From a bacterium (lineage in GTDB: Bacteria > JAHJDO01): 11,416 nt of DNA. A model generated the notes under the pieces. It made no database searches. It saw only the letters and a list, made by a program, of their open reading frames with translations, and was not told where the DNA came from. How positions within the stretch are numbered: position 1 is the stretch's first letter; the number at the start of each line of letters is the position of its first letter. Below are positions 2 to 11,416 of the stretch, in pieces. A program made the position numbers and the translations under genes. The DNA lies in contig JAUWOV010000058.1 in the NCBI GenBank assembly GCA_030611945.1, positions 1 through 11,416 on the forward strand, in the 5' to 3' direction.

Positions 2-1354
2 CTCCTTCAGCCAGAGGTAACAATTGGCTACAGTTATGATGCAAATGGAAACAAAGTAACTATGACTGGTCCAACTGGAACAACAGATTACAGCTATGAT
101 GTAGTTAACCGGTTAATATCTCTTACCAATCCAGATGCTCAAAGTACTGCCTTTGACTATGATGAGTTAAGCCGAAGAACATCTATGACTTTAGCAAACG
201 GGATAGCTACCAGCTACAGTTATGATTTCGCAAGTCAGTTAATCGGTATTCAGTCCTCAGCAGTCAGTTATCAATATACTTATGATAAAGTTGGTAACAG
301 AACCGCCATGACCGAACTTACAGGTCCAAATAACTATACCTATGACGTGCTTAATAGACTTATATCTTCAACTCATCCACAACCAGTTAATCCAGCAGAA
401 ACATTTACTTATGATACCGTGGATAATAGATTAATTTCACACGTCTCATCGTCCTATGTCTATGATGAATTAAACAGACTATTAGAAGACGAGCAATATA
501 CCTACGCATATGATAATAATGGCAATACGACTTCTAAGACAGACAAAACTACATTAGAGACTACTACTTACACATACAATGCCGAGAATCAGCTTGCAAG
601 GATAGATTTTGCAGGTGGTACTTATGTGGCTTATGCCTATGACGGATTAGGAAGACGCATACAAAAGGATGTCAATGGAGTAATTACAAGATATATTTAT
701 GATGCTGAAGACATATTGCTTGAATATGATGGCGCTAACACACTCACAGCAAGATATACTCATGGGGCAGGAGTAGATGAGCCTATTAGTATGGATAGAG
801 GAGGGCAATGCTACTTCTATCATGTTGACGGATTAGGAAGCGTAACTATTCTCACCGACTCTGCTGGGAATGTAGTCCAAGCTTATATTTACGATTCTTT
901 TGGTAACATCGTAGAACAAACTGGCTCGTTGACAAATCCGTATACATATACAGGTAGAGAGTTTGATAAGGATAGTGGTTTGTATTATTACAGGGCTAGA
1001 TATTATGACGCGAAAGTGGGGAGGTTTACAACGGTTGATCCTCTCCTCAGCATGATTTCTTCAGCAGGCGGATGCGGTTGTAACGGGGCAATAATCGAAC
1101 TTACTACGACGATGCGTATTGACCTTTATAATCCGTCTGAATTACATTCTTATGTATATTGCAGGAATAATCCTGTAAGTTTTATTGATCCAATGGGGCT
1201 TGTCGCAAAGGAAGACTGCATGAGTATATGCGATAGAAAATATAGTCAGGCTAAGTCAAGGTGTTTCAGGCATATTCTCTGTCCTTCAAAATGGGCAGCT
1301 TGCATGGAAAAGGCACGAGGAAGTTGGTACATTTGCTATATAAACTGTATCTAA
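2..1354 (+). CDS. Rhs/YD-repeat protein A, C-terminal part (5' end outside window), with cysteine-rich tip
   Basis: The reading frame is open from the window edge, so the first ATG at 62 is internal; 450 residues are visible. About nine tyrosine-aspartate (YD) repeats of the form YxYDxxNRL or YxYDxxGN run to roughly 840. The Rhs core follows: HVDGLGSV, YDSFGNI, YTYTGREFDKDSGLYYYRARYYDAKVGRF and then NNPVSFIDPMGL, with DPMGL at 1187-1201. In this family the repeats build a hollow beta shell, and the DPxGL region is where the variable C-terminal tip is cut off. The tip here is only 50 residues (1202-1351) with seven cysteines, and I recognise no enzymatic toxin domain in it. A cysteine/glycine-containing insert sits between DPLLSM and YVYCRNNPV. 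The stop overlaps the next start (TAATG). By family knowledge this is a secreted polymorphic toxin or adhesin-like protein. The Rhs assignment is firm; the tip's activity is unknown. Confidence 0.93.
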   Translation, partial: LLQPEVTIGYSYDANGNKVTMTGPTGTTDYSYDVVNRLISLTNPDAQSTAFDYDELSRRTSMTLANGIATSYSYDFASQLIGIQSSAVSYQYTYDKVGNRTAMTELTGPNNYTYDVLNRLISSTHPQPVNPAETFTYDTVDNRLISHVSSSYVYDELNRLLEDEQYTYAYDNNGNTTSKTDKTTLETTTYTYNAENQLARIDFAGGTYVAYAYDGLGRRIQKDVNGVITRYIYDAEDILLEYDGANTLTARYTHGAGVDEPISMDRGGQCYFYHVDGLGSVTILTDSAGNVVQAYIYDSFGNIVEQTGSLTNPYTYTGREFDKDSGLYYYRARYYDAKVGRFTTVDPLLSMISSAGGCGCNGAIIELTTTMRIDLYNPSELHSYVYCRNNPVSFIDPMGLVAKEDCMSICDRKYSQAKSRCFRHILCPSKWAACMEKARGSWYICYINCI

Positions 1355-1851
1355 TGTATTGGATGAAAAGTAGAAATATGAAAAAAATAATTTGGGGAAT
1401 TTTTGCGGTACTCTTATGTTCTATAGTTACCTATGGTTTAATGCTGATTACTCTTTCAGTATTCCTCGGGCCTGCTAGCGGAGTAGCCTCTATTATGAGA
1501 CGTATTGGATGCTCAGAAGTCCTAATTTTTCATGGGCGTATTTTTACAATTGAACTTGGTTGGGTTTTATCCAGCTTCATCGGAGGACTTCTGGTAGGTT
1601 TGTGGTGTAAGTATCATGGGTGGTTTCATGGTTTAGTGGTAGTACTTTGTTCATACATAATTCATGGACTGGCAATAATGCAGACAGAAGTTGTTCAAGA
1701 AGCTTTGAAAGGAATGTTCGTGGAAAAAGGGCTTTATACAGGGCGTATCTTTGTATCAATAATTATTTTTTTATTGTGTCTCCTTTGTGGTGGCATTGGT
1801 GGTGAGTTAGGAGTTCGCATTAGAACAAAGTTACTAAAAAGGGCAAACTAA
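1354..1851 (+). CDS. Small four-helix membrane protein; candidate immunity/partner of Rhs A tip
   Basis: The protein has 165 residues from the ATG at 1354, which overlaps the Rhs A stop as TAATG. In-frame ATGs at 1363 and 1378 are alternatives; the last gives a tidier MKKIIWG start, and no strong ribosome-binding site decides between them. Four hydrophobic segments are visible: IIWGIFAVLLCSIVTYGLMLI, ELGWVLSSFIGGLLVGLW, GLVVVLCSYIIHGLAIM and FVSIIIFLLCLLCGGIGG. The last runs into a glycine-rich GGIGGELG turn and a basic tail (RIRTKLLKRAN). It belongs to no family I can name. Its place directly behind a toxin tip, with overlapping start, is where Rhs immunity genes sit, so an immunity role is a positional inference only. 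An unrelated small integral membrane protein is equally compatible with the sequence. Confidence 0.7.
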   Translation: MYWMKSRNMKKIIWGIFAVLLCSIVTYGLMLITLSVFLGPASGVASIMRRIGCSEVLIFHGRIFTIELGWVLSSFIGGLLVGLWCKYHGWFHGLVVVLCSYIIHGLAIMQTEVVQEALKGMFVEKGLYTGRIFVSIIIFLLCLLCGGIGGELGVRIRTKLLKRAN

Positions 1852-1884
1852 ATGATACAAGGCAACCTAGCATTGAAACTTGAA
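1836..1884 (+). repeat. Module-junction repeat, copy 1 (AAAAAGGG ... TAA|ATG ATA CAA GG ... leader MIQGNLALKLE)
   Basis: This junction joins the end of the first membrane-protein gene to the start of Rhs B. It recurs at 3142-3209 after the second membrane-protein gene. Both copies have AAAAAGGG followed by the previous gene's TAA, then ATGATACAAGG, and then an 11-residue leader differing at one position (MIQGNLALKLE here, MIQGNLVLKLE there). Within the leader codons most differences are synonymous (ggc/ggt, cta/tta, ttg/cta, ctt/cta). The copies are therefore old, and the peptide rather than the DNA appears to be conserved. Confidence 0.6.
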
Positions 1885-2754
1885 GAGTTTGAGGATAGTT
1901 ATTGCGGTCTTCATTTGCTAGATGACAGAGAGCAAAGTTTCCCTGACAATATCATTCAGTTTCCATTAAAAAATAACACCTACAGCGCGTATGAGCACGA
2001 TTATCAGAATCTGATAAAGAAGATTATATTCCCTGACGCTTCAGTCAACGCATTCAATTATTGCAGATGCGGACCTGTCCGGAGGATGAAGCAGGATTCT
2101 ACAGGTACAACAAAATATCTCTATGATTTTGATGAAACATACCTGCTCTATGACTGCGATGAAAGCTGGAATGTAAAGGCTCAGTATACACTCGGTCTTG
2201 GAATAGACGAAATAATCAGCAAGAAATATCTTGATGGAGTGACATGGAAGAAGATATATTATCATTATGATGGATTGGGAAGTGTAGTTGCCCTTACAGA
2301 TGAAAACGGAGACTTAATCGGCAGATATGTTTACGACTCATTCGGAAATATCGTATCAGAGCCAGTGGGAGTGGATAACAGATATACCTATACAGGAAGA
2401 GAGTATGATAAGGATTCAGGATTGTACTATTACAGGGCGAGGTATTATGATGCGAAGGTGGGTAGGTTTACCACTGTTGATCCTCTTCTCAGCATGATTT
2501 GTTCAGGATATGGAGGGGGAGGGTGTGGCGTGATAACTCCTACTGCTTCTTTTGAACATCCTTATGTATATTGTTTAAATAATCCGGTTAATTATAAAGA
2601 TCCAACCGGGGAATTTGTGGATCCCGTAACTGCTGCTATTATACTACTAATAGTTATTGCCATTGCATATGCTAATTATCTTGCTGTCTGTTCGGATCCC
2701 TGTTCTACTCCTGAAGACATACAAAGAGCCCATGACGCAATACCAACAAAATGA
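1852..2754 (+). CDS. Rhs B: short (orphan-type) Rhs core with a membrane-helix tip
   Basis: The 300-residue protein starts directly after the preceding stop (TAA then ATG). Residues 1 to about 48 resemble nothing I know and begin with the repeated leader MIQGNLALKLE. From about residue 50 it aligns with the end of Rhs A: YLYDFDETYLLYD, YHYDGLGSVVALTDENG, YVYDSFGNIV and YTYTGREYDKDSGLYYYRARYYDAKVGRF, ending at NNPVNYKDPTGE (DPTGE 250-254). The tip is residues 255-300: a hydrophobic helix around 258-279, then a CSDPC motif and a polar end. It lacks the signal peptide, beta-propeller and most YD repeats of a full Rhs protein, which is the layout of a displaced Rhs core-tip cassette. It has an intact frame of normal codon structure, so it is not an obvious pseudogene. 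It may be expressed alone or serve as a donor for tip exchange; both are inferences. Confidence 0.85.
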   Translation: MIQGNLALKLEEFEDSYCGLHLLDDREQSFPDNIIQFPLKNNTYSAYEHDYQNLIKKIIFPDASVNAFNYCRCGPVRRMKQDSTGTTKYLYDFDETYLLYDCDESWNVKAQYTLGLGIDEIISKKYLDGVTWKKIYYHYDGLGSVVALTDENGDLIGRYVYDSFGNIVSEPVGVDNRYTYTGREYDKDSGLYYYRARYYDAKVGRFTTVDPLLSMICSGYGGGGCGVITPTASFEHPYVYCLNNPVNYKDPTGEFVDPVTAAIILLIVIAIAYANYLAVCSDPCSTPEDIQRAHDAIPTK

Positions 2755-3176
2755 AACCAAATATGAAAATTGACAAGTCAATGAGGATGCCAAGAAGATA
2801 TGCTATTGTTAATATAGTTGTAGCTCTTCTGATGTTTTTGATGCTCACCGGCTTATGTGTTATTGGTATGAAGATGGCATGTAGTTGGAAGAGCGCATCA
2901 AAGACACAGGAGAAAATGAGTAAGTTTGTGCCAACTACTTCAGCCGAACAGGGCATGAAAAAGCTTCTTATTCATTATTGCTGGGTGACTAAAGTTCAGA
3001 GAGCTGAGTTTTTTCTCCTAGTGACAGTAGTCTTTGCTTTCGGGTTTTTTGGAGTATATTCATTCACAGTAATTAGGAAACTCACTATGAAATTAGCAAG
3101 GCACAGCAACACAAGGAAAGAAGAAAAAGAGCAAAAGGAGCAAAAAGGGACAGCAACCTTTTTAAAGGAAGAATAA
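2751..3176 (+). CDS. Small two-helix membrane protein; candidate immunity/partner of Rhs B tip
   Basis: The protein has 141 residues; its ATG overlaps the Rhs B stop as ATGA, a classic translational-coupling junction. In-frame ATGs at 2763, 2781 and 2787 are possible later starts, none with a clear ribosome-binding site. A basic N-terminus (MRMPRR) precedes a first membrane helix (about residues 17-42). A polar middle of about 45 residues with two cysteines follows, then a second helix (about 87-108). The C-terminus is highly charged (KEEKEQKEQK) and ends in FLKEE. I recognise no family. Position after an Rhs tip makes an immunity role plausible, but it does not resemble the protein after Rhs A in helix number. 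The 3' end overlaps a short inverted repeat (3142-3163), so the charged tail may partly derive from a repeat element. Confidence 0.65.
   Translation: MKPNMKIDKSMRMPRRYAIVNIVVALLMFLMLTGLCVIGMKMACSWKSASKTQEKMSKFVPTTSAEQGMKKLLIHYCWVTKVQRAEFFLLVTVVFAFGFFGVYSFTVIRKLTMKLARHSNTRKEEKEQKEQKGTATFLKEE
3142..3163. repeat. Short inverted repeat AAAAAGG-8 nt-CCTTTTT
   Basis: Perfect 7-bp arms (3142-3148 and 3157-3163) flank an 8-nt loop GACAGCAA, inside the 3' end of the two-helix membrane-protein gene. The arms are mostly A/T, so the hairpin is weak as RNA. It has the oligo-T tract of a terminator but only two G-C pairs, so I do not call it one. It resembles short REP-like palindromes of the AAAAAGG...CCTTTTT type that I recall from environmental bacterial genomes. 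Confidence 0.4.
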
Positions 3177-3245
3177 ATGATACAAGGTAACTTAGTGCTA
3201 AAACTAGAAAAAAGCGAGATGGAAAAATTAGGGGTAGCATCGTAA
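3177..3245 (+). CDS. 22-codon stub ORF with Rhs B leader (module junction, copy 2)
   Basis: The ORF starts directly after the preceding TAA and stops in a TAATG overlap with rpmC. It encodes 22 residues beginning MIQGNLVLKLEKSEMEKLG; the first 11 match the Rhs B leader at 10 positions. After the leader the two sequences part, and no YD-repeat or core follows. It could be the remnant of a third Rhs cassette whose body was lost, the abandoned 5' junction of the whole insertion, or a translated spacer that keeps ribosomes moving into rpmC. It contains the AGGGG (3230-3234) that probably serves as the rpmC ribosome-binding site. The open frame is certain; expression and function are not. Confidence 0.4.
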   Translation: MIQGNLVLKLEKSEMEKLGVAS

Positions 3246-3472
3246 TGAAGGTTAGTAAGTTTAGAGATATGACAAATATAGAATTAGATCAAGAGCTTGT
3301 TAATCTGAAACAGGAAATATTTAATTTGAGTGTTCGTTCATCTACGGGGCAATTGGAGGATCCAAAAAGGATCGGACGATTAAGAAAAGATATAGCGAGA
3401 ATTAATACTGTCCTGCGAGAGGGACAGATAGAGGAAAGGAAAAGTGAAAAAGATTCAAAAGGGAAAGACTAA
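3245..3472 (+). CDS. rpmC: 50S ribosomal protein L29 (uL29)
   Basis: The 75-residue protein is a small two-helix component of the large subunit near the polypeptide exit tunnel. The L29 pattern is clear: [39 protein letters not shown], then the second helix [19 protein letters not shown]. It is slightly longer than average because of a charged tail. The start overlaps the stop of the upstream 22-codon ORF, and AGGGG at 3230-3234 gives a good spacing of 10 nt. Normally rplP lies directly upstream; here it is replaced by Rhs material, so the gene has lost its usual neighbour and possibly its native promoter. The 3' end overlaps rpsQ by 29 nt. Confidence 0.96.
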
Positions 3473-4429: not shown

Positions 4430-4978
4430 ATGACACGATTAGAAAAGAAATATAAAGAAGACACAATACCGCAAATGATGAAGAAGTTTGGGTATAAAAA
4501 TAAACTGCAGGTCCCGAAATTGGAAAAGATTGTGCTTAACACATGTCTAAAAGAGGCTATAGAAAATAAGAAGGTTTTAGATAGCGCATGTTTAGAACTG
4601 GGAGCAATAACAGGACAAAAGCCAATTATTACAAAGGCAAAGAAGTCTGTAGCAGGGTTTAAGCTCAGAGAAAATATGCCAATAGGAGCTAAAGTAACTC
4701 TACGGCGAAACAGAATGCATGAATTCCTTGACCGCTTGTTAAATATAACTCTGCCGCGTATAAGGGATTTTAGAGGAGTTTCTTCGAAATCTTTTGACAT
4801 TAGCGGAAATTACACACTGGGTATTAAAGAACAGACTATATTCCCTGAAATAGATGTTGATAAAGTAGAAAAGGTTCATGGAATGGATATTACAATTGTA
4901 ACCAGCGCAAAAACTCCTGACGAAGGAAGAGAGCTATTGGGATTATTAGGGATGCCTTTTAGTAGAGAGGATACATAA
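4430..4978 (+). CDS. rplE: 50S ribosomal protein L5 (uL5)
   Basis: The 182-residue protein is close to the standard length of about 180. It binds 5S rRNA and contacts S13 across the central protuberance. Family blocks in order are [110 protein letters not shown] and [27 protein letters not shown]. The start follows the rplX stop by three nt. The gene is followed by the only long gap in the ribosomal block, which holds a palindromic repeat. Confidence 0.97.
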
Positions 4979-4989
4979 GAATGACAAAA

Positions 4990-5125
4990 AAACTAAATAC
5001 GAAGCACGAAATACTAAACAATATCAAATAACCAAAATACAAATGTTCAAAACAATGTTTAGAATTTTGAGAATTAGAATTTTAAATTTGTTTCGAGTTT
5101 AGATATTAGGATTTAGGATTTAGGA
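4990..5125. repeat. AT-rich imperfect palindromic intergenic repeat between rplE and rpsZ
   Basis: The 154-bp gap contains no gene. It is built as an imperfect inverted repeat with arms of about 60 nt around the core AAACAATGTTT (near 5050-5060). The left arm carries CTAAATACGAAGCACGAAAT and CTAAAC; the right arm carries GTTTCGAGTTTAG and ends in the short direct repeat ATTTAGGATTTAGG. The last copy of TTAGG supplies the Shine-Dalgarno AGGAGA (5122-5127) of rpsZ. From memory, similar palindromes (AAACAATGTTT cores with AATTCAAAATTC-like arms) are scattered between genes in Omnitrophota and other candidate-phylum genomes; I cannot check this here. Confidence 0.6.
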
Positions 5126-5132
5126 GAAAGAG

Positions 5133-5318
5133 ATGGCAAGAAAAGCGCTTATAGTAAAAGCTAAAAGAGAGCCGAAACATAAGGTGCAGAGATATAATAG
5201 GTGCAGTTTGTGCGGAAGACCGCGTGGATATATAAGAAAATTTGGATTATGTAGAATATGTTTTAGAAAATTAGCTCTGAGCGGAAAACTGCCTGGAGTT
5301 ATAAAAGCTAGTTGGTAA
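5133..5318 (+). CDS. rpsZ: 30S ribosomal protein S14, zinc-binding short type (uS14)
   Basis: The 61-residue protein is the short S14 form with four zinc ligands, visible as C24-x2-C27 and C40-x2-C43 (CSLC and CRIC). It acts in the 30S head near the decoding region. The rest matches the family: [30 protein letters not shown] and a C-terminal GVIKASW. The ribosome-binding site AGGAGA (5122-5127) is contributed by the end of the upstream palindromic repeat. It sits in the normal spc position between rplE and rpsH. Confidence 0.97.
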
Positions 5319-6685: not shown

Positions 6686-7177
6686 TTGATAGAAAACAGA
6701 AAAGAAAAGGGCGCAGATGGGCAGGAGCTAATAGAGCGAGTTGTGCATGTAAATAGAGTTGGTAAGGTTGTAAAAGGCGGAAGAAAGTTTGGTTTTAGTA
6801 GTCTGGCTGTAGTAGGGGATGGAAATGGAAAAGTAGGATACGGCATAGGTAAGGCAAACGCAGTACCTGAGTCAATAAAAAAAGCTGTCCAATCAGCAAA
6901 GAGGAATATGATAGATGTTTTAATTGTAGATACAACAATCCCGTTTGAAATAGTAGGTCATTATGATGCAGCAAGAATTATGTTGAAACCTGCTTCAAAG
7001 GGAACTGGTGTAATTGCAGGAAGCGCGGTTAGGGCTGTATTGGAAGCTGTTGGCATTCAAAATGCTTTGACAAAATGTTTGGGATCCAATAATTCTATAA
7101 ATGTTGTTAGAGCAACAATAGAAGGTTTGAGAAATATATCAGAGATTTATGAGTTATCAAAGAAAAGGCGCAGATAA
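6686..7177 (+). CDS. rpsE: 30S ribosomal protein S5 (uS5)
   Basis: The 163-residue protein has the usual length. It sits at the mRNA entry site and acts in decoding fidelity. The N-terminal double-stranded-RNA-binding-like domain reads [54 protein letters not shown]. The C-terminal domain reads [48 protein letters not shown]. The TTG start is supported by GAGGAGG. In many bacteria rpmD (L30) follows; here rplO begins at once after the stop, so L30 is absent from its normal place. Confidence 0.97.
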
Positions 7178-7618
7178 ATGATATTAGGTAATTTGAAAGT
7201 TCCTAAAGGCGCTAGCAAGAGGAAGAAAATAGTTGGACGCGGCGATGGTTCCGGTCATGGGAAAACTGCCTGCAGGGGGAGCAAGGGGCAGAGATCAAGA
7301 TCCGGCGGCGGAGTTCGCCGTGGTTTTGAAGGCGGTCAAATGCCTCTCTATCGCAGAGTGCCAAAAAGAGGATTTACAAGCCGCTCAAGGGAAAAAATAG
7401 CAATTATAAATATAGAGAAATTAAATTGTTTTAAGGACGGCTCGGTTGTGAATCTTGAGCGTCTTACAGAAAAAGGGCTGTTAAAGTCTCAGAATGCTTT
7501 AGTCAAAATTTTAGGTGTGGGAGAGTTAAAGAAAAAGTTAAATGTAAAAGCGCATAGCTTTAGTAAGGGTGCTATCAAGAAGATTGTAGGCGCTGGAGGA
7601 ACTGCAGAGGTTACATAA
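7178..7618 (+). CDS. rplO: 50S ribosomal protein L15 (uL15)
   Basis: The 146-residue protein is a late-assembly, 23S rRNA-binding component. The glycine- and arginine-rich N-terminus is diagnostic: KVPKGASKRKKIVGRGDGSGHGKTACRGSKGQRSRSGGGVRRGFEGGQMPLYRRVPKRGF. The globular C-terminal part reads INIEKLNCFKDGSVVNLERLTEKGLL ... VKILGVGELKKKLNVKAHSFSKGAIKKI. The start abuts the rpsE stop (TAA|ATG), and the stop overlaps the secY start (TAATG). Local GC is higher in the glycine-rich part, as expected from its composition. Confidence 0.97.
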   Translation: MILGNLKVPKGASKRKKIVGRGDGSGHGKTACRGSKGQRSRSGGGVRRGFEGGQMPLYRRVPKRGFTSRSREKIAIINIEKLNCFKDGSVVNLERLTEKGLLKSQNALVKILGVGELKKKLNVKAHSFSKGAIKKIVGAGGTAEVT

Positions 7619-8981: not shown

Positions 8982-11416
8982 ATGACTATCAAAAAAATAA
9001 TCACATTAGCCAGCCTATCTATTCTATGTCTTTTAACCCTCTCCCCCAATCTTGAAGCCAAAGGTAGAAACATTGATATTACCATCGCCCCTGATAAAGC
9101 GGAAGATTATGTTATAGAAGAAAAAGCCACATTTGACATAGAGATGACGCGTCGTAATAGACCTGCCAACATAAAGCTGAAGCAGATAGAAGCAACATTC
9201 CCAAATGAAGATATTTCAGTAAGTTTAACCAAAGTCAGCAAAGGCAAATTTAAATATATCAGCGAGGGATTTGAGGAGACTGGAGAGAAGACACTAGCCA
9301 TGACGGTAAGGACTTATGGAGCGGTAAAAAGCGTGGAGAGTCTTGAAAGAGCAAAGGAGAGACTTGAGAAGAGGATAGAGAAGCTGGAGGAACGAAAGGA
9401 GAACACAAACAATGAGAGGCTCAAGCGAATACTAGACAGGTTAATAGCCAAATGTCAGAGAAGCATTCAGAAGATAGAAGCTAAAATAGAGAAGATTAGA
9501 GAGAAGGGAATTATAGGCGAAGCTAGTTTGACGATCAATGTAATACCCATTGCTCCGCCGCCAGAAGTTCCTGAATCAGGACATATTTACGGCAATGTGT
9601 ATGACAGTGTGACAGAACTTCCCATTTATGAAGTTGTAATAATAGTAGAAGGAATAGAAGGAGGAGTTTCAACTGATGAAGAAGGAAGATTCAGATTCCC
9701 TATATCAGAGTTTGAGGGAGATTTCAGAGACGCAAAACTCCTCATTCAAAAAGAAGGATATATTTCTGTAACGAGAAATATAAGCGTAGTATCGGAAAGA
9801 GATGTTTCGGTAGGAGATATCTATCTAAAAGAGGTTGATCCTGTAGTTACAGAGATAACGCCAGCAGGAGGAGAGGCTACTGATTCTACTGAAACAGTAA
9901 AGTTAATTTTTCCTCCTGATGCAGTATCAGAGCCGGTTGATATTGTAATTACGCCGTATGAAGAAGAAAAGGAATTACCAGAAAAACTTCCGCTTAATAC
10001 TGGTTTTTTAACAGGGATAAGCGTTCAGGACGGAGGAGCCACATTCACACAGCCTGTAACCGTGGAATTGCCAAATGACAAAGGATTTCCGCCGGGCACA
10101 TTAATTCCCATTGGCAGATACTATCAAGATATAGAAGAGTGGGTGCATGAAACAATGGCGGTTGTAAACGAAGACGGAACCAAGATAGTATATCAGACGA
10201 CTCAATTCAGCAACCATTCTGCAGGTGTATCAACAAAGACTGAGGATGGTGGCGCAGGAGTGCATGGAGATAAAGAAGTAGACAAAGCGCCAGACGATCC
10301 ATTCCAACCTGAGCCAGGGGTTTACGCAGGTCTCAGAATGGGAAATCTTACTATTGAACATAAGCTTCCTTCAATTAAATGTCTTGGCAAAATAGAGGCG
10401 TTAAATTTTTACTATCAAACGGAGACAGTAAATCCCAGACCAAGGGTAAGCTTAGAACTTAGATGTCCGTCAGGTGGAGTAGGAGGAAGACCAATCCCGG
10501 AGACACTTGGATTTGATATATCTATAGGAGACGAGAATAGACATGTTGTGTTTGAATCTCAGCCAGGATGGTATAAACAGAGTTACATGTTTGACGCAAG
10601 AGATGGAGACGGCAATCTTCTTCCTACAGGAAGTTATCCGTATTCAGCAAATACAAGCAATGACTATGATGCTGTTTACTGCTTGACAGACGAATTTGGA
10701 GGTCCTCCGCTCGTATCAACAGGCATACCAACAGAAAAACCAGTTTCAATTCCAATGGTTGCGCCAGGAAGAGTAGAAATTCAGAATGAGACCGACAGCC
10801 CGTTTGGCGCAGGTTGGAGTATAGAAGGTTTGCAAAGAATGCATTTTGATCCTGATGGCACAATACTCCTGACAAATGGCGATGGAAGCATGGATATATT
10901 TGCAGCAGGGGAAGAAGTAGCAAAGGGATTTGGAATTCCTGCGTACATAGCAATAAGTCCTGAGGAAGACATCATTGTAACAGACCCATTCATTTCTCAG
11001 ATGACAGAAGTAGGAAAATCGGAAGTAATAACAGTCGTAAGAATAAGTCCTGATGGCACTAAAACAAAGGTAGTTGATTTAGAGAGACCAACAGGGATAG
11101 TTTATGACGCATTTGGCAATTTATATATAGCAAGCGCCAGATTTCCAAAGTATGAAAACGGCATCCCAATCCCGGGAACTTTTCCAACGATACTCAGAAT
11201 AGACCCTTTAGGAGGAACTACAGAATTGCCCTGTCCAGCCGCAAGACCTGGAGCATTAGCGATAGACGCACTGAATAATCTATATGTAGCTGACCTTATA
11301 ATGGGCAGAATATACAAGATAACGCCTTTAGGCCAGGTAAGTATTTTTGCAAAAGGATTTCAAATGCCGGGGGAAATGGCGTTTGATACATCAGGAAATC
11401 TCTACGTAGCCAATGG
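8982..11416 (+). CDS. Giant Sec-exported Rhs/teneurin-like protein D, N-terminal part (3' end outside window)
   Basis: The frame is open for 811 residues to the window edge. In order: a signal peptide (TIKKIITLASLSILCLLTLSPNLEA, cleavage after about residue 26) and an Ig-like beta domain (27-115). A charged coiled-coil hairpin follows (about 117-176), then a carboxypeptidase-regulatory-like beta domain (about 200-285; GNVYDSVTELPIYEVVI ... STDEEGRFRF). Next is a ZU5-like domain (about 286-430; FPPDAVSEPVDIVITP), then the plug/shell entry typical of YD proteins (MGNLTIEHKLPSIKCLGKIEALNFYY, and SPFGAGWSIEGLQRM at 606-620). Last comes a beta-propeller of NHL type (from about 649; RPTGIVYDAFGNLYIA, GALAIDALNNLYVA, MPGEMAFDTSGNLYVAN). 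YD repeats should follow beyond the window. There is no PAAR or VgrG-like start, so export is by Sec, not by type VI secretion. The identification is firm; the toxin tip is not visible. Confidence 0.92.
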   Translation, partial: MTIKKIITLASLSILCLLTLSPNLEAKGRNIDITIAPDKAEDYVIEEKATFDIEMTRRNRPANIKLKQIEATFPNEDISVSLTKVSKGKFKYISEGFEETGEKTLAMTVRTYGAVKSVESLERAKERLEKRIEKLEERKENTNNERLKRILDRLIAKCQRSIQKIEAKIEKIREKGIIGEASLTINVIPIAPPPEVPESGHIYGNVYDSVTELPIYEVVIIVEGIEGGVSTDEEGRFRFPISEFEGDFRDAKLLIQKEGYISVTRNISVVSERDVSVGDIYLKEVDPVVTEITPAGGEATDSTETVKLIFPPDAVSEPVDIVITPYEEEKELPEKLPLNTGFLTGISVQDGGATFTQPVTVELPNDKGFPPGTLIPIGRYYQDIEEWVHETMAVVNEDGTKIVYQTTQFSNHSAGVSTKTEDGGAGVHGDKEVDKAPDDPFQPEPGVYAGLRMGNLTIEHKLPSIKCLGKIEALNFYYQTETVNPRPRVSLELRCPSGGVGGRPIPETLGFDISIGDENRHVVFESQPGWYKQSYMFDARDGDGNLLPTGSYPYSANTSNDYDAVYCLTDEFGGPPLVSTGIPTEKPVSIPMVAPGRVEIQNETDSPFGAGWSIEGLQRMHFDPDGTILLTNGDGSMDIFAAGEEVAKGFGIPAYIAISPEEDIIVTDPFISQMTEVGKSEVITVVRISPDGTKTKVVDLERPTGIVYDAFGNLYIASARFPKYENGIPIPGTFPTILRIDPLGGTTELPCPAARPGALAIDALNNLYVADLIMGRIYKITPLGQVSIFAKGFQMPGEMAFDTSGNLYVAN

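What the first reader, a model, noticed from the sequence alone, without database searches (positions are those of the whole stretch)
1836..3245. A conserved leader (MIQGNLxLKLE) opens each Rhs unit straight after the preceding gene's stop
At 1852 and 3177 the sequence TAA|ATGATACAAGG recurs, preceded in both cases by AAAAAGGG and followed by an 11-residue leader that differs at one position. Most leader-codon differences are synonymous, so the peptide seems selected. One copy leads into an Rhs core, the other only into an 11-codon remainder before rpmC. This could mark the 5' boundary of an exchangeable Rhs cassette or a translation-restart device, which I do not know to be described.
Basis: partly seen in the sequence, partly recalled or inferred. 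Interest (0 to 1): 0.65.

Follow-up and report, generated by a model that had tools for sequence, protein, structure and literature searches.

The report
Terminal adaptor ORF of Rhs islands
In one genus of uncultured bacteria, toxin-type Rhs gene islands have inserted inside essential operons such as the ribosomal-protein operon, and most of them end in the same short conserved reading frame, which usually runs up to the start codon of the next gene and so probably hands ribosomes on to it.

Summary
In detail: TAA|ATGATACAAGG and MIQGNL(A/V)LKLE recur at 1852 and 3177. It is not one local duplication. The leader is the first part of a ~40-codon conserved frame with about 14 copies in three species of the genus, under protein-level constraint (pN/pS 0.29). 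Two sister species without Rhs have none. It sits 3' of the putative immunity gene, so it ends an Rhs unit rather than opening one. After it comes either the truncated core of a second Rhs unit (in frame, 3/3) or another gene. Empty-site comparison shows that the 3177 copy is the right end of an Rhs island inserted exactly at the rplP/rpmC overlap, flanked by an identical 31-bp duplication. The '11-codon remainder' is largely the duplicated rplP tail (EKLGVAS*), in frame with the leader, so the native TAATG junction with rpmC is recreated. In 9 of 12 copies the frame fuses with, or overlaps by 1-10 nt, the next gene (about 13% expected). Best explanation: a terminal translation-initiation/reinitiation ORF that keeps translation going into the following gene, functionally like integron ORF-11. 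Coupling is inferred, not measured; the mobility mechanism is unknown.

The parts
2..1354 (+). 3' part of the first Rhs gene of the island (YD repeats, Rhs-associated core, short Cys-rich variable tip); runs off the contig start
   Evidence: Pfam RHS_repeat 6e-26; TIGR03696 8e-19
1378..1851 (+). small membrane protein right after tip 1, putative immunity gene 1; its stop codon TAA directly abuts the leader ATG
   Evidence: ORF table; no Pfam family; role inferred from position
1852..1992 (+). leader copy a (about 38-42 conserved codons MIQGNLALKLEEFEDSYC...PDNIIQFP)
   Evidence: homologous copies aligned; searches
1852..2754 (+). leader a fused in frame to a truncated Rhs core plus variable tip 2 (orphan-type Rhs module that has a start codon)
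   Evidence: TIGR03696 1.9e-20; leader a frame continues into the core
2751..3176 (+). small membrane protein, putative immunity gene 2; overlaps the stop of the previous ORF and abuts leader b
   Evidence: ORF table; role inferred from position
3140..3164 (+). REP-like palindromic stretch AAAAAGGGACAGCAACCTTTTT, similar to stretches before other leader copies
   Evidence: sequence, judged by eye
3177..3209 (+). leader copy b, first 11 codons, MIQGNLVLKLE
3177..3245 (+). complete leader-b ORF; ends with the duplicated rplP tail EKLGVAS* and overlaps the rpmC start (TAATG)
3221..3251 (+). 31-bp direct duplication of the rplP/rpmC junction (GGAAAAATTAGGGGTAGCATCGTAATGAAGG); the other copy is at C103:25346-25376, left of the island
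3245..3472 (+). rpmC (L29), first host gene right of the island
   Evidence: Pfam Ribosomal_L29 1.3e-20
8982..11416 (+). 5' part of a second Rhs-type island between secY and adk; continues on contig C76 and ends there with another leader before adk
   Evidence: 116-bp end overlap C24/C76; C76 ORFs; adjacent secY-adk in G002-G004

Best explanation
The leader is the terminal ORF of Rhs islands that inserted, in the sense orientation, between co-oriented housekeeping genes. It carries its own Shine-Dalgarno-like AAGGA and an ATG at or near the stop of the putative immunity gene. Its frame runs on until it overlaps or fuses with the next coding sequence: the truncated core of a second Rhs unit inside an array, or the next gene at the end of the island. 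Ribosomes that finish the immunity gene (or load at the leader) would translate the leader and then reinitiate at, or read straight into, the next gene. This would keep translational continuity where the island interrupted it, and would give displaced Rhs-core fragments a start codon. Shown: recurrence, position, reading-frame constraint, stop/start geometry, in-frame fusions, and the 31-bp duplication with empty sites in relatives. Inferred: that translation is actually coupled and that this is why the ORF is kept. Unknown: how islands move, and whether the conserved peptide has a job of its own.
For: About 14 copies in three Rhs-bearing species; none in the two Rhs-free sister species. Third codon positions vary most, and pN/pS is 0.29 in frame versus 0.74 and 1.08 out of frame. 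Nine of 12 copies read into the next gene: 4 in-frame fusions (3 Rhs cores, 1 small ORF before adk) and 5 overlaps of 1, 4, 4, 8 and 10 nt (rpmC, a hicB-like gene, a small membrane gene, a nucleotidyltransferase gene, pilT). With native gene starts of the same genome as null, overlaps of 1-10 nt are expected in 9.8%; 5 of 9 gives P about 8e-4. At rpmC the native TAATG junction of the relatives is recreated exactly. Three overlapped genes have no Shine-Dalgarno-like sequence, while the three genes the leader does not reach have one. The two Rhs islands whose next gene is convergent have no leader.
Against: No expression data. Three copies (before tuf, rny and a glycosyltransferase gene) stop 29-335 nt short of the next gene. 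If only coupling mattered the amino acids need not be conserved, yet they are, which points to a peptide function as well. Degenerate copies in G003 lie away from Rhs. A plain frame-0 versus frame-1/2 comparison is weak because the leader has early stops in the other two frames. The coupling statistics are post hoc and rest on few loci in fragmented metagenome assemblies.
Confidence: 0.55

Rival explanations
1. The leader is a small Rhs-associated protein of ~40-55 aa with its own function (for example a third module component). The stop/start overlaps are the ordinary compact spacing of operon genes, and the truncated copies are damaged genes.
For: Protein-level constraint up to codon 38; unfused ORFs of 52-55 aa in four loci.
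Against: No Pfam, NCBIfam or PDB relative; no confident fold (pLDDT 58); C-terminal ends unrelated between copies; copies cut to 11-16 codons still end in stop/start overlaps, and three are fused to Rhs cores.
Confidence: 0.22
2. The leader is the 3' end of a mobile or recombining Rhs cassette, kept as a DNA-level end or crossover site; the open frame is incidental.
For: Lies at the 3' end of most units; 31-bp duplication at one insertion; REP-like palindromes just upstream of many copies and a Y1 (RAYT-like) transposase gene in G003:C34.
Against: Conservation follows codon positions, not DNA; right ends differ from copy to copy (codons 11 to ~45); no recombinase recognised in the islands; no long duplication seen at the pilC site.
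Confidence: 0.13
3. The leader is the inert remnant of an ordinary gene that was caught at the junction when Rhs modules were displaced.
For: Variable 3' truncation; degenerate copies in G003; restricted to one genus.
Against: No longer version found in five genomes of the genus, the GTDB genome collection or IMG/VR; constraint and frame preservation.
Confidence: 0.05
4. The Rhs/ribosomal-operon junctions are assembly chimeras.
For: All genomes are fragmented metagenome assemblies; contigs break inside Rhs repeats; no contig spans the island from rplP to rpmC.
Against: Both junctions of the rplP/rpmC island share an exact 31-bp duplicate found nowhere else in the genome, in sequence that differs from relatives by about 7 changes; similar junctions occur on independent contigs and in another species; C115 spans a whole island including both flanks.
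Confidence: 0.05

Closest known systems
ORF-11 / ORF-18 of the attI1 site in class 1 integrons (review PMC8876359; Hanau-Bercot et al. 2002 as cited there)
   Same: A short ORF with its own ribosome-binding site next to a junction; its stop is supplied by what lies downstream (here the duplicated rplP tail or the next gene); predicted to hand ribosomes to a gene that may lack a ribosome-binding site.
   Different: Not an integron: no attC or integrase seen. It sits at the 3' end of the inserted unit and serves the following gene, host genes included. Its amino-acid sequence is conserved, whereas ORF-11 tolerates substitutions.
Orphan rhs-CT/rhsI and cdiA-CT/cdiI modules (PMC3150448, PMC3967940)
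   Same: Array of full Rhs plus immunity gene followed by a truncated core plus tip plus immunity gene.
   Different: Enterobacterial orphan toxin fragments usually lack translation initiation signals; here all three readable truncated cores start from the same in-frame leader. Toxicity and immunity are not tested here.
Translational coupling by stop/start overlap in bacterial operons (review PMC12548453) and engineered bicistronic designs
   Same: -1 (TAATG) and -4 (ATGA) spacing; short upstream cistron feeding the next gene.
   Different: Here the short cistron is a repeated, dispersed sequence attached to a mobile-looking toxin-type island.
REP sequences and RAYT transposases
   Same: REP-like palindromes precede many leader copies; a Y1-type transposase gene lies near two G003 copies.
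   Different: The leader is coding and constrained; no evidence that a RAYT moves it.

Membership tests
Rhs / YD-repeat polymorphic toxin loci | YD repeats and Rhs-associated core followed by a variable C-terminal tip | tested here: met
   TIGR01643 and TIGR03696 hits on window ORFs and on C3, C76 and G001 C82; tips differ between loci
Rhs / YD-repeat polymorphic toxin loci | tip is toxic and the next gene neutralises it | not testable with these tools
   needs expression tests; partners are small membrane proteins, one Rce1-like and one Yip1-like
Orphan Rhs-CT modules | truncated core homologous to the main Rhs, located downstream of the main immunity gene | tested here: met
   window 1852-2754 and G001 C82:1209-2876
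Orphan Rhs-CT modules | usually without translation initiation signal | tested here: not met
   the truncated cores start in frame from the leader ATG
Integron ORF-11-type translational enhancer | short ORF with its own SD, stop at or near the next start | tested here: met
   SD-like AAGGA in most copies; overlaps or fusions in 9 of 12
Integron ORF-11-type translational enhancer | located in attI next to an integron integrase | tested here: not met
   no integrase or attC recognised among the ORFs of the loci; no dedicated profile search was made
Integron ORF-11-type translational enhancer | loss of the ORF lowers downstream translation | not testable with these tools
   needs reporters or ribosome profiling
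Transposon or integrative element | target-site duplication and an encoded recombinase | tested here: inconclusive
   31-bp duplication at rplP/rpmC, but no recombinase recognised in the islands and no long duplication at pilC

The most novel reading that the evidence does not exclude
A toxin-type mobile island carries a built-in translational adaptor: a conserved terminal ORF that lets it insert inside essential, translationally coupled operons without cutting off the downstream genes, and that also gives displaced toxin modules a start codon. In effect it is an insulation device that makes ribosomal-protein operons usable as a landing site.
Probability: 0.35. Interest if true: 0.75.

Novelty: new variant of a known kind. 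Interest (0 to 1): 0.55.

Why it matters
Insertions into ribosomal-protein operons should be strongly harmful, because the genes are essential and often translationally coupled. A recurring terminal ORF that restores the stop/start junction would explain how such islands are tolerated, and would be a natural counterpart of engineered bicistronic adaptors. It also suggests that orphan Rhs modules in this lineage may be translated, unlike most described ones, and it gives a sequence handle (MIQGNLALKLE) for finding Rhs island ends in this genus.

Tried and rejected
Single local duplication: rejected, copies at other loci and in other species. Leader as the 5' start of Rhs: rejected, full Rhs genes start with their own signal peptide and no leader (L023, L011, window 8982). 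Known domain: no Pfam, NCBIfam or PDB match. Structure prediction: low confidence, one helix only, so no fold search was run. Wider spread: the GTDB genome scan found only related MAGs, IMG/VR none; one weak hit in an unrelated genome (G013, E 0.007) was not pursued. Derivation from the rplO start (MILGNLK): 13/20 identity against 10 or less at other TAAATG sites sampled; suggestive only. Long duplications at other islands: not seen at pilC nor by eye at secY/adk; the left flanks of the tuf and rplD islands were not found in the contigs read. A frame-0 versus frames 1/2 comparison was done but discounted, because the leader itself has stops in the other frames; an offset-based null was used instead (the '5 of 8' and '6 of 8' figures printed used a wrong denominator and are replaced).

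Full report
What the finding is. Copy a (1852) opens a 300-aa ORF whose remainder is an Rhs-associated core and a short variable tip (TIGR03696). Copy b (3177) is a 22-codon ORF ending in TAATG with rpmC.

It is a dispersed element, not a local duplication. The window is contig C24 of a 1.66-Mb, 119-contig genome. Protein and profile searches found leader copies in this genome at C24 (two), C3, C76 and C115; in same-genus genome G001 at C82 (two), C123 and C170; in G003 at C34 (two), C123 and C16 (two, weak). The conserved part is about 40 codons, consensus MIQGNLALKLEDFEEDYCYPYIVDxxEQNLPDNIIQFPxSK, with ten invariant columns. G002 and G004, the other two genomes of the genus held here, have no Rhs core match and no significant leader. 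A scan of the GTDB genome collection returned only the related assemblies, and IMG/VR returned none.

It is read as protein. Third codon positions vary most (0.40 against 0.22 and 0.15), and pooled pN/pS is 0.29 in frame against 0.74 and 1.08 in the other frames. No Pfam, NCBIfam or PDB family matches, and AlphaFold gives no confident fold.

It belongs to the 3' end of Rhs units. Full-length Rhs genes start with their own signal-peptide-like sequence (MTIK[KR]II...) and have no leader (L023:3420, L011:4449, window 8982). The leader follows the small gene or genes after the Rhs tip. What follows the leader is either a truncated core of a second Rhs unit (window 1852; G001 C82; G003 C34) or another gene (rpmC, tuf, a HicB-like gene before pilC, a nucleotidyltransferase/HepT pair before rplD, pilT, a small ORF before adk, rny, a glycosyltransferase-like gene) (genes without a cited family hit were named by eye). 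For C170 the link to Rhs is weaker: the upstream gene is a lipase-like protein, and its resemblance to the start of a neighbouring Rhs protein was judged by eye only. Two Rhs islands, G001:C66 and G003:C24, have no leader, and in both the next gene is convergent; leader presence against orientation gives P about 0.03, on few loci.

The rplP/rpmC insertion. In G002, G003 and G004, rplP and rpmC are adjacent and overlap as TAATG. In this genome rplP lies on C103 and runs intact through its stop and the first bases of rpmC, then into the 5' end of an Rhs gene; C24 carries leader b, then rpmC. The two junctions share an exact 31-bp sequence, GGAAAAATTAGGGGTAGCATCGTAATGAAGG (C103:25346 and window 3221), found nowhere else in the genome, whereas the relatives differ there at about 7 positions. 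So an Rhs island sits at the rplP/rpmC overlap and is flanked by a duplication that leaves rplP complete and gives rpmC its original upstream sequence. Leader b is in frame with the duplicated rplP codons EKLGVAS and its stop, so the native TAATG junction is recreated. No contig spans the whole island, so a chimera is not formally excluded.

Other islands. C24's right end (Rhs start at 8982, after secY) overlaps the end of C76 by 116 bp; C76 continues the Rhs gene, then an Rce1-like membrane protein, a leader, and adk. In the relatives secY and adk are adjacent. C115 carries a complete island between a gspE/pilB-type gene and pilC; the G001 empty site shows the two genes adjacent. In G001, islands precede tuf and rplD. 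All of these read in the direction of the host operon.

Stop/start geometry. Of 12 copies that could be scored, 4 are fused in frame with the next coding sequence and 5 overlap its start by 1, 4, 4, 8 or 10 nt; 3 stop 29, 148 and 335 nt short. For leaders placed 47-151 nt upstream of native gene starts of this genome, an overlap of 1-10 nt is expected in 9.8% and a fusion in 3.1%; 5 of 9 overlaps gives P about 8e-4. These are post hoc figures. On the upstream side, five copies start directly at, or overlap, the preceding stop. Leader starts mostly carry an AAGGA-type Shine-Dalgarno. Three overlapped genes (hicB-like, nucleotidyltransferase, small membrane gene) have none, while the three genes that the leader does not reach have one; the numbers are too small to test.

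Mechanism. The most economical reading is a terminal translation-initiation/reinitiation ORF: ribosomes terminating at the immunity gene, or loading at the leader, translate it and reinitiate at, or read into, the following gene. This would limit the damage of inserting an island into a translationally coupled operon and would give displaced Rhs-core fragments a start. Coupling is most efficient at -4 to +3 nt, and -4 and -1 are the commonest spacings (PMC12548453). The closest functional precedent is ORF-11 of class 1 integrons, an 11-codon ORF with its own SD at the cassette junction, whose stop codon is supplied by the inserted cassette and which feeds ribosomes to cassettes lacking an initiation region (PMC8876359). 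Differences: no integron parts were seen, it lies at the downstream end of the insert, it feeds host genes, and its amino acids are conserved. Described orphan rhs/cdiA fragments usually lack initiation signals (PMC3150448, PMC3967940); here they have this one.

What remains open. Whether translation is coupled; whether the peptide has its own role (the conservation suggests it may); how islands and leaders spread. REP-like palindromes precede many copies, and a Y1-type transposase gene lies near the G003 C34 copies, but the right ends of the leaders differ and no recombinase was recognised in the islands. No role as a toxin was tested for any tip, nor as an immunity protein for any partner.

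Noticed in passing
window 8982-11416 and G000:C76 (L010:9495-14171): A second Rhs island sits between secY and adk; its two halves are on different contigs joined by a 116-bp overlap. It also ends in a leader.
   Followed up: partly
window 4976-5140: AT-rich repeat between rplE and rpsN in the spc operon; similar stretches elsewhere in the genus (86% over 142 nt in L098).
   Followed up: partly
window 7175-7200: The rplO start (TAAATGATATTAGGTAATTTG, MILGNLK) directly after the rpsE stop resembles the leader start more than other TAAATG sites sampled (13/20 identical); a possible source of the leader's initiation region.
   Followed up: partly
L027:2654-3316 (G003:C34): Y1_Tnp (RAYT-like) gene ending in the same GGGGTCAACTCCCTTT palindrome that precedes G003 leader copies.
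   Followed up: partly
L090:1510-1900 (G003:C16) and L039:1435-1548 (G003:C123): Degenerate leader copies without a neighbouring Rhs gene; one still overlaps the start of a small membrane gene by ATGA. They may be scars of lost islands.
   Followed up: partly
L011:11196-11215 and L025:3305-3325: The same 20-mer TACGAAATACGAACAATGAA joins the leader to toxin-antitoxin-type genes in two species at different loci; origin unexplained.
   Followed up: no
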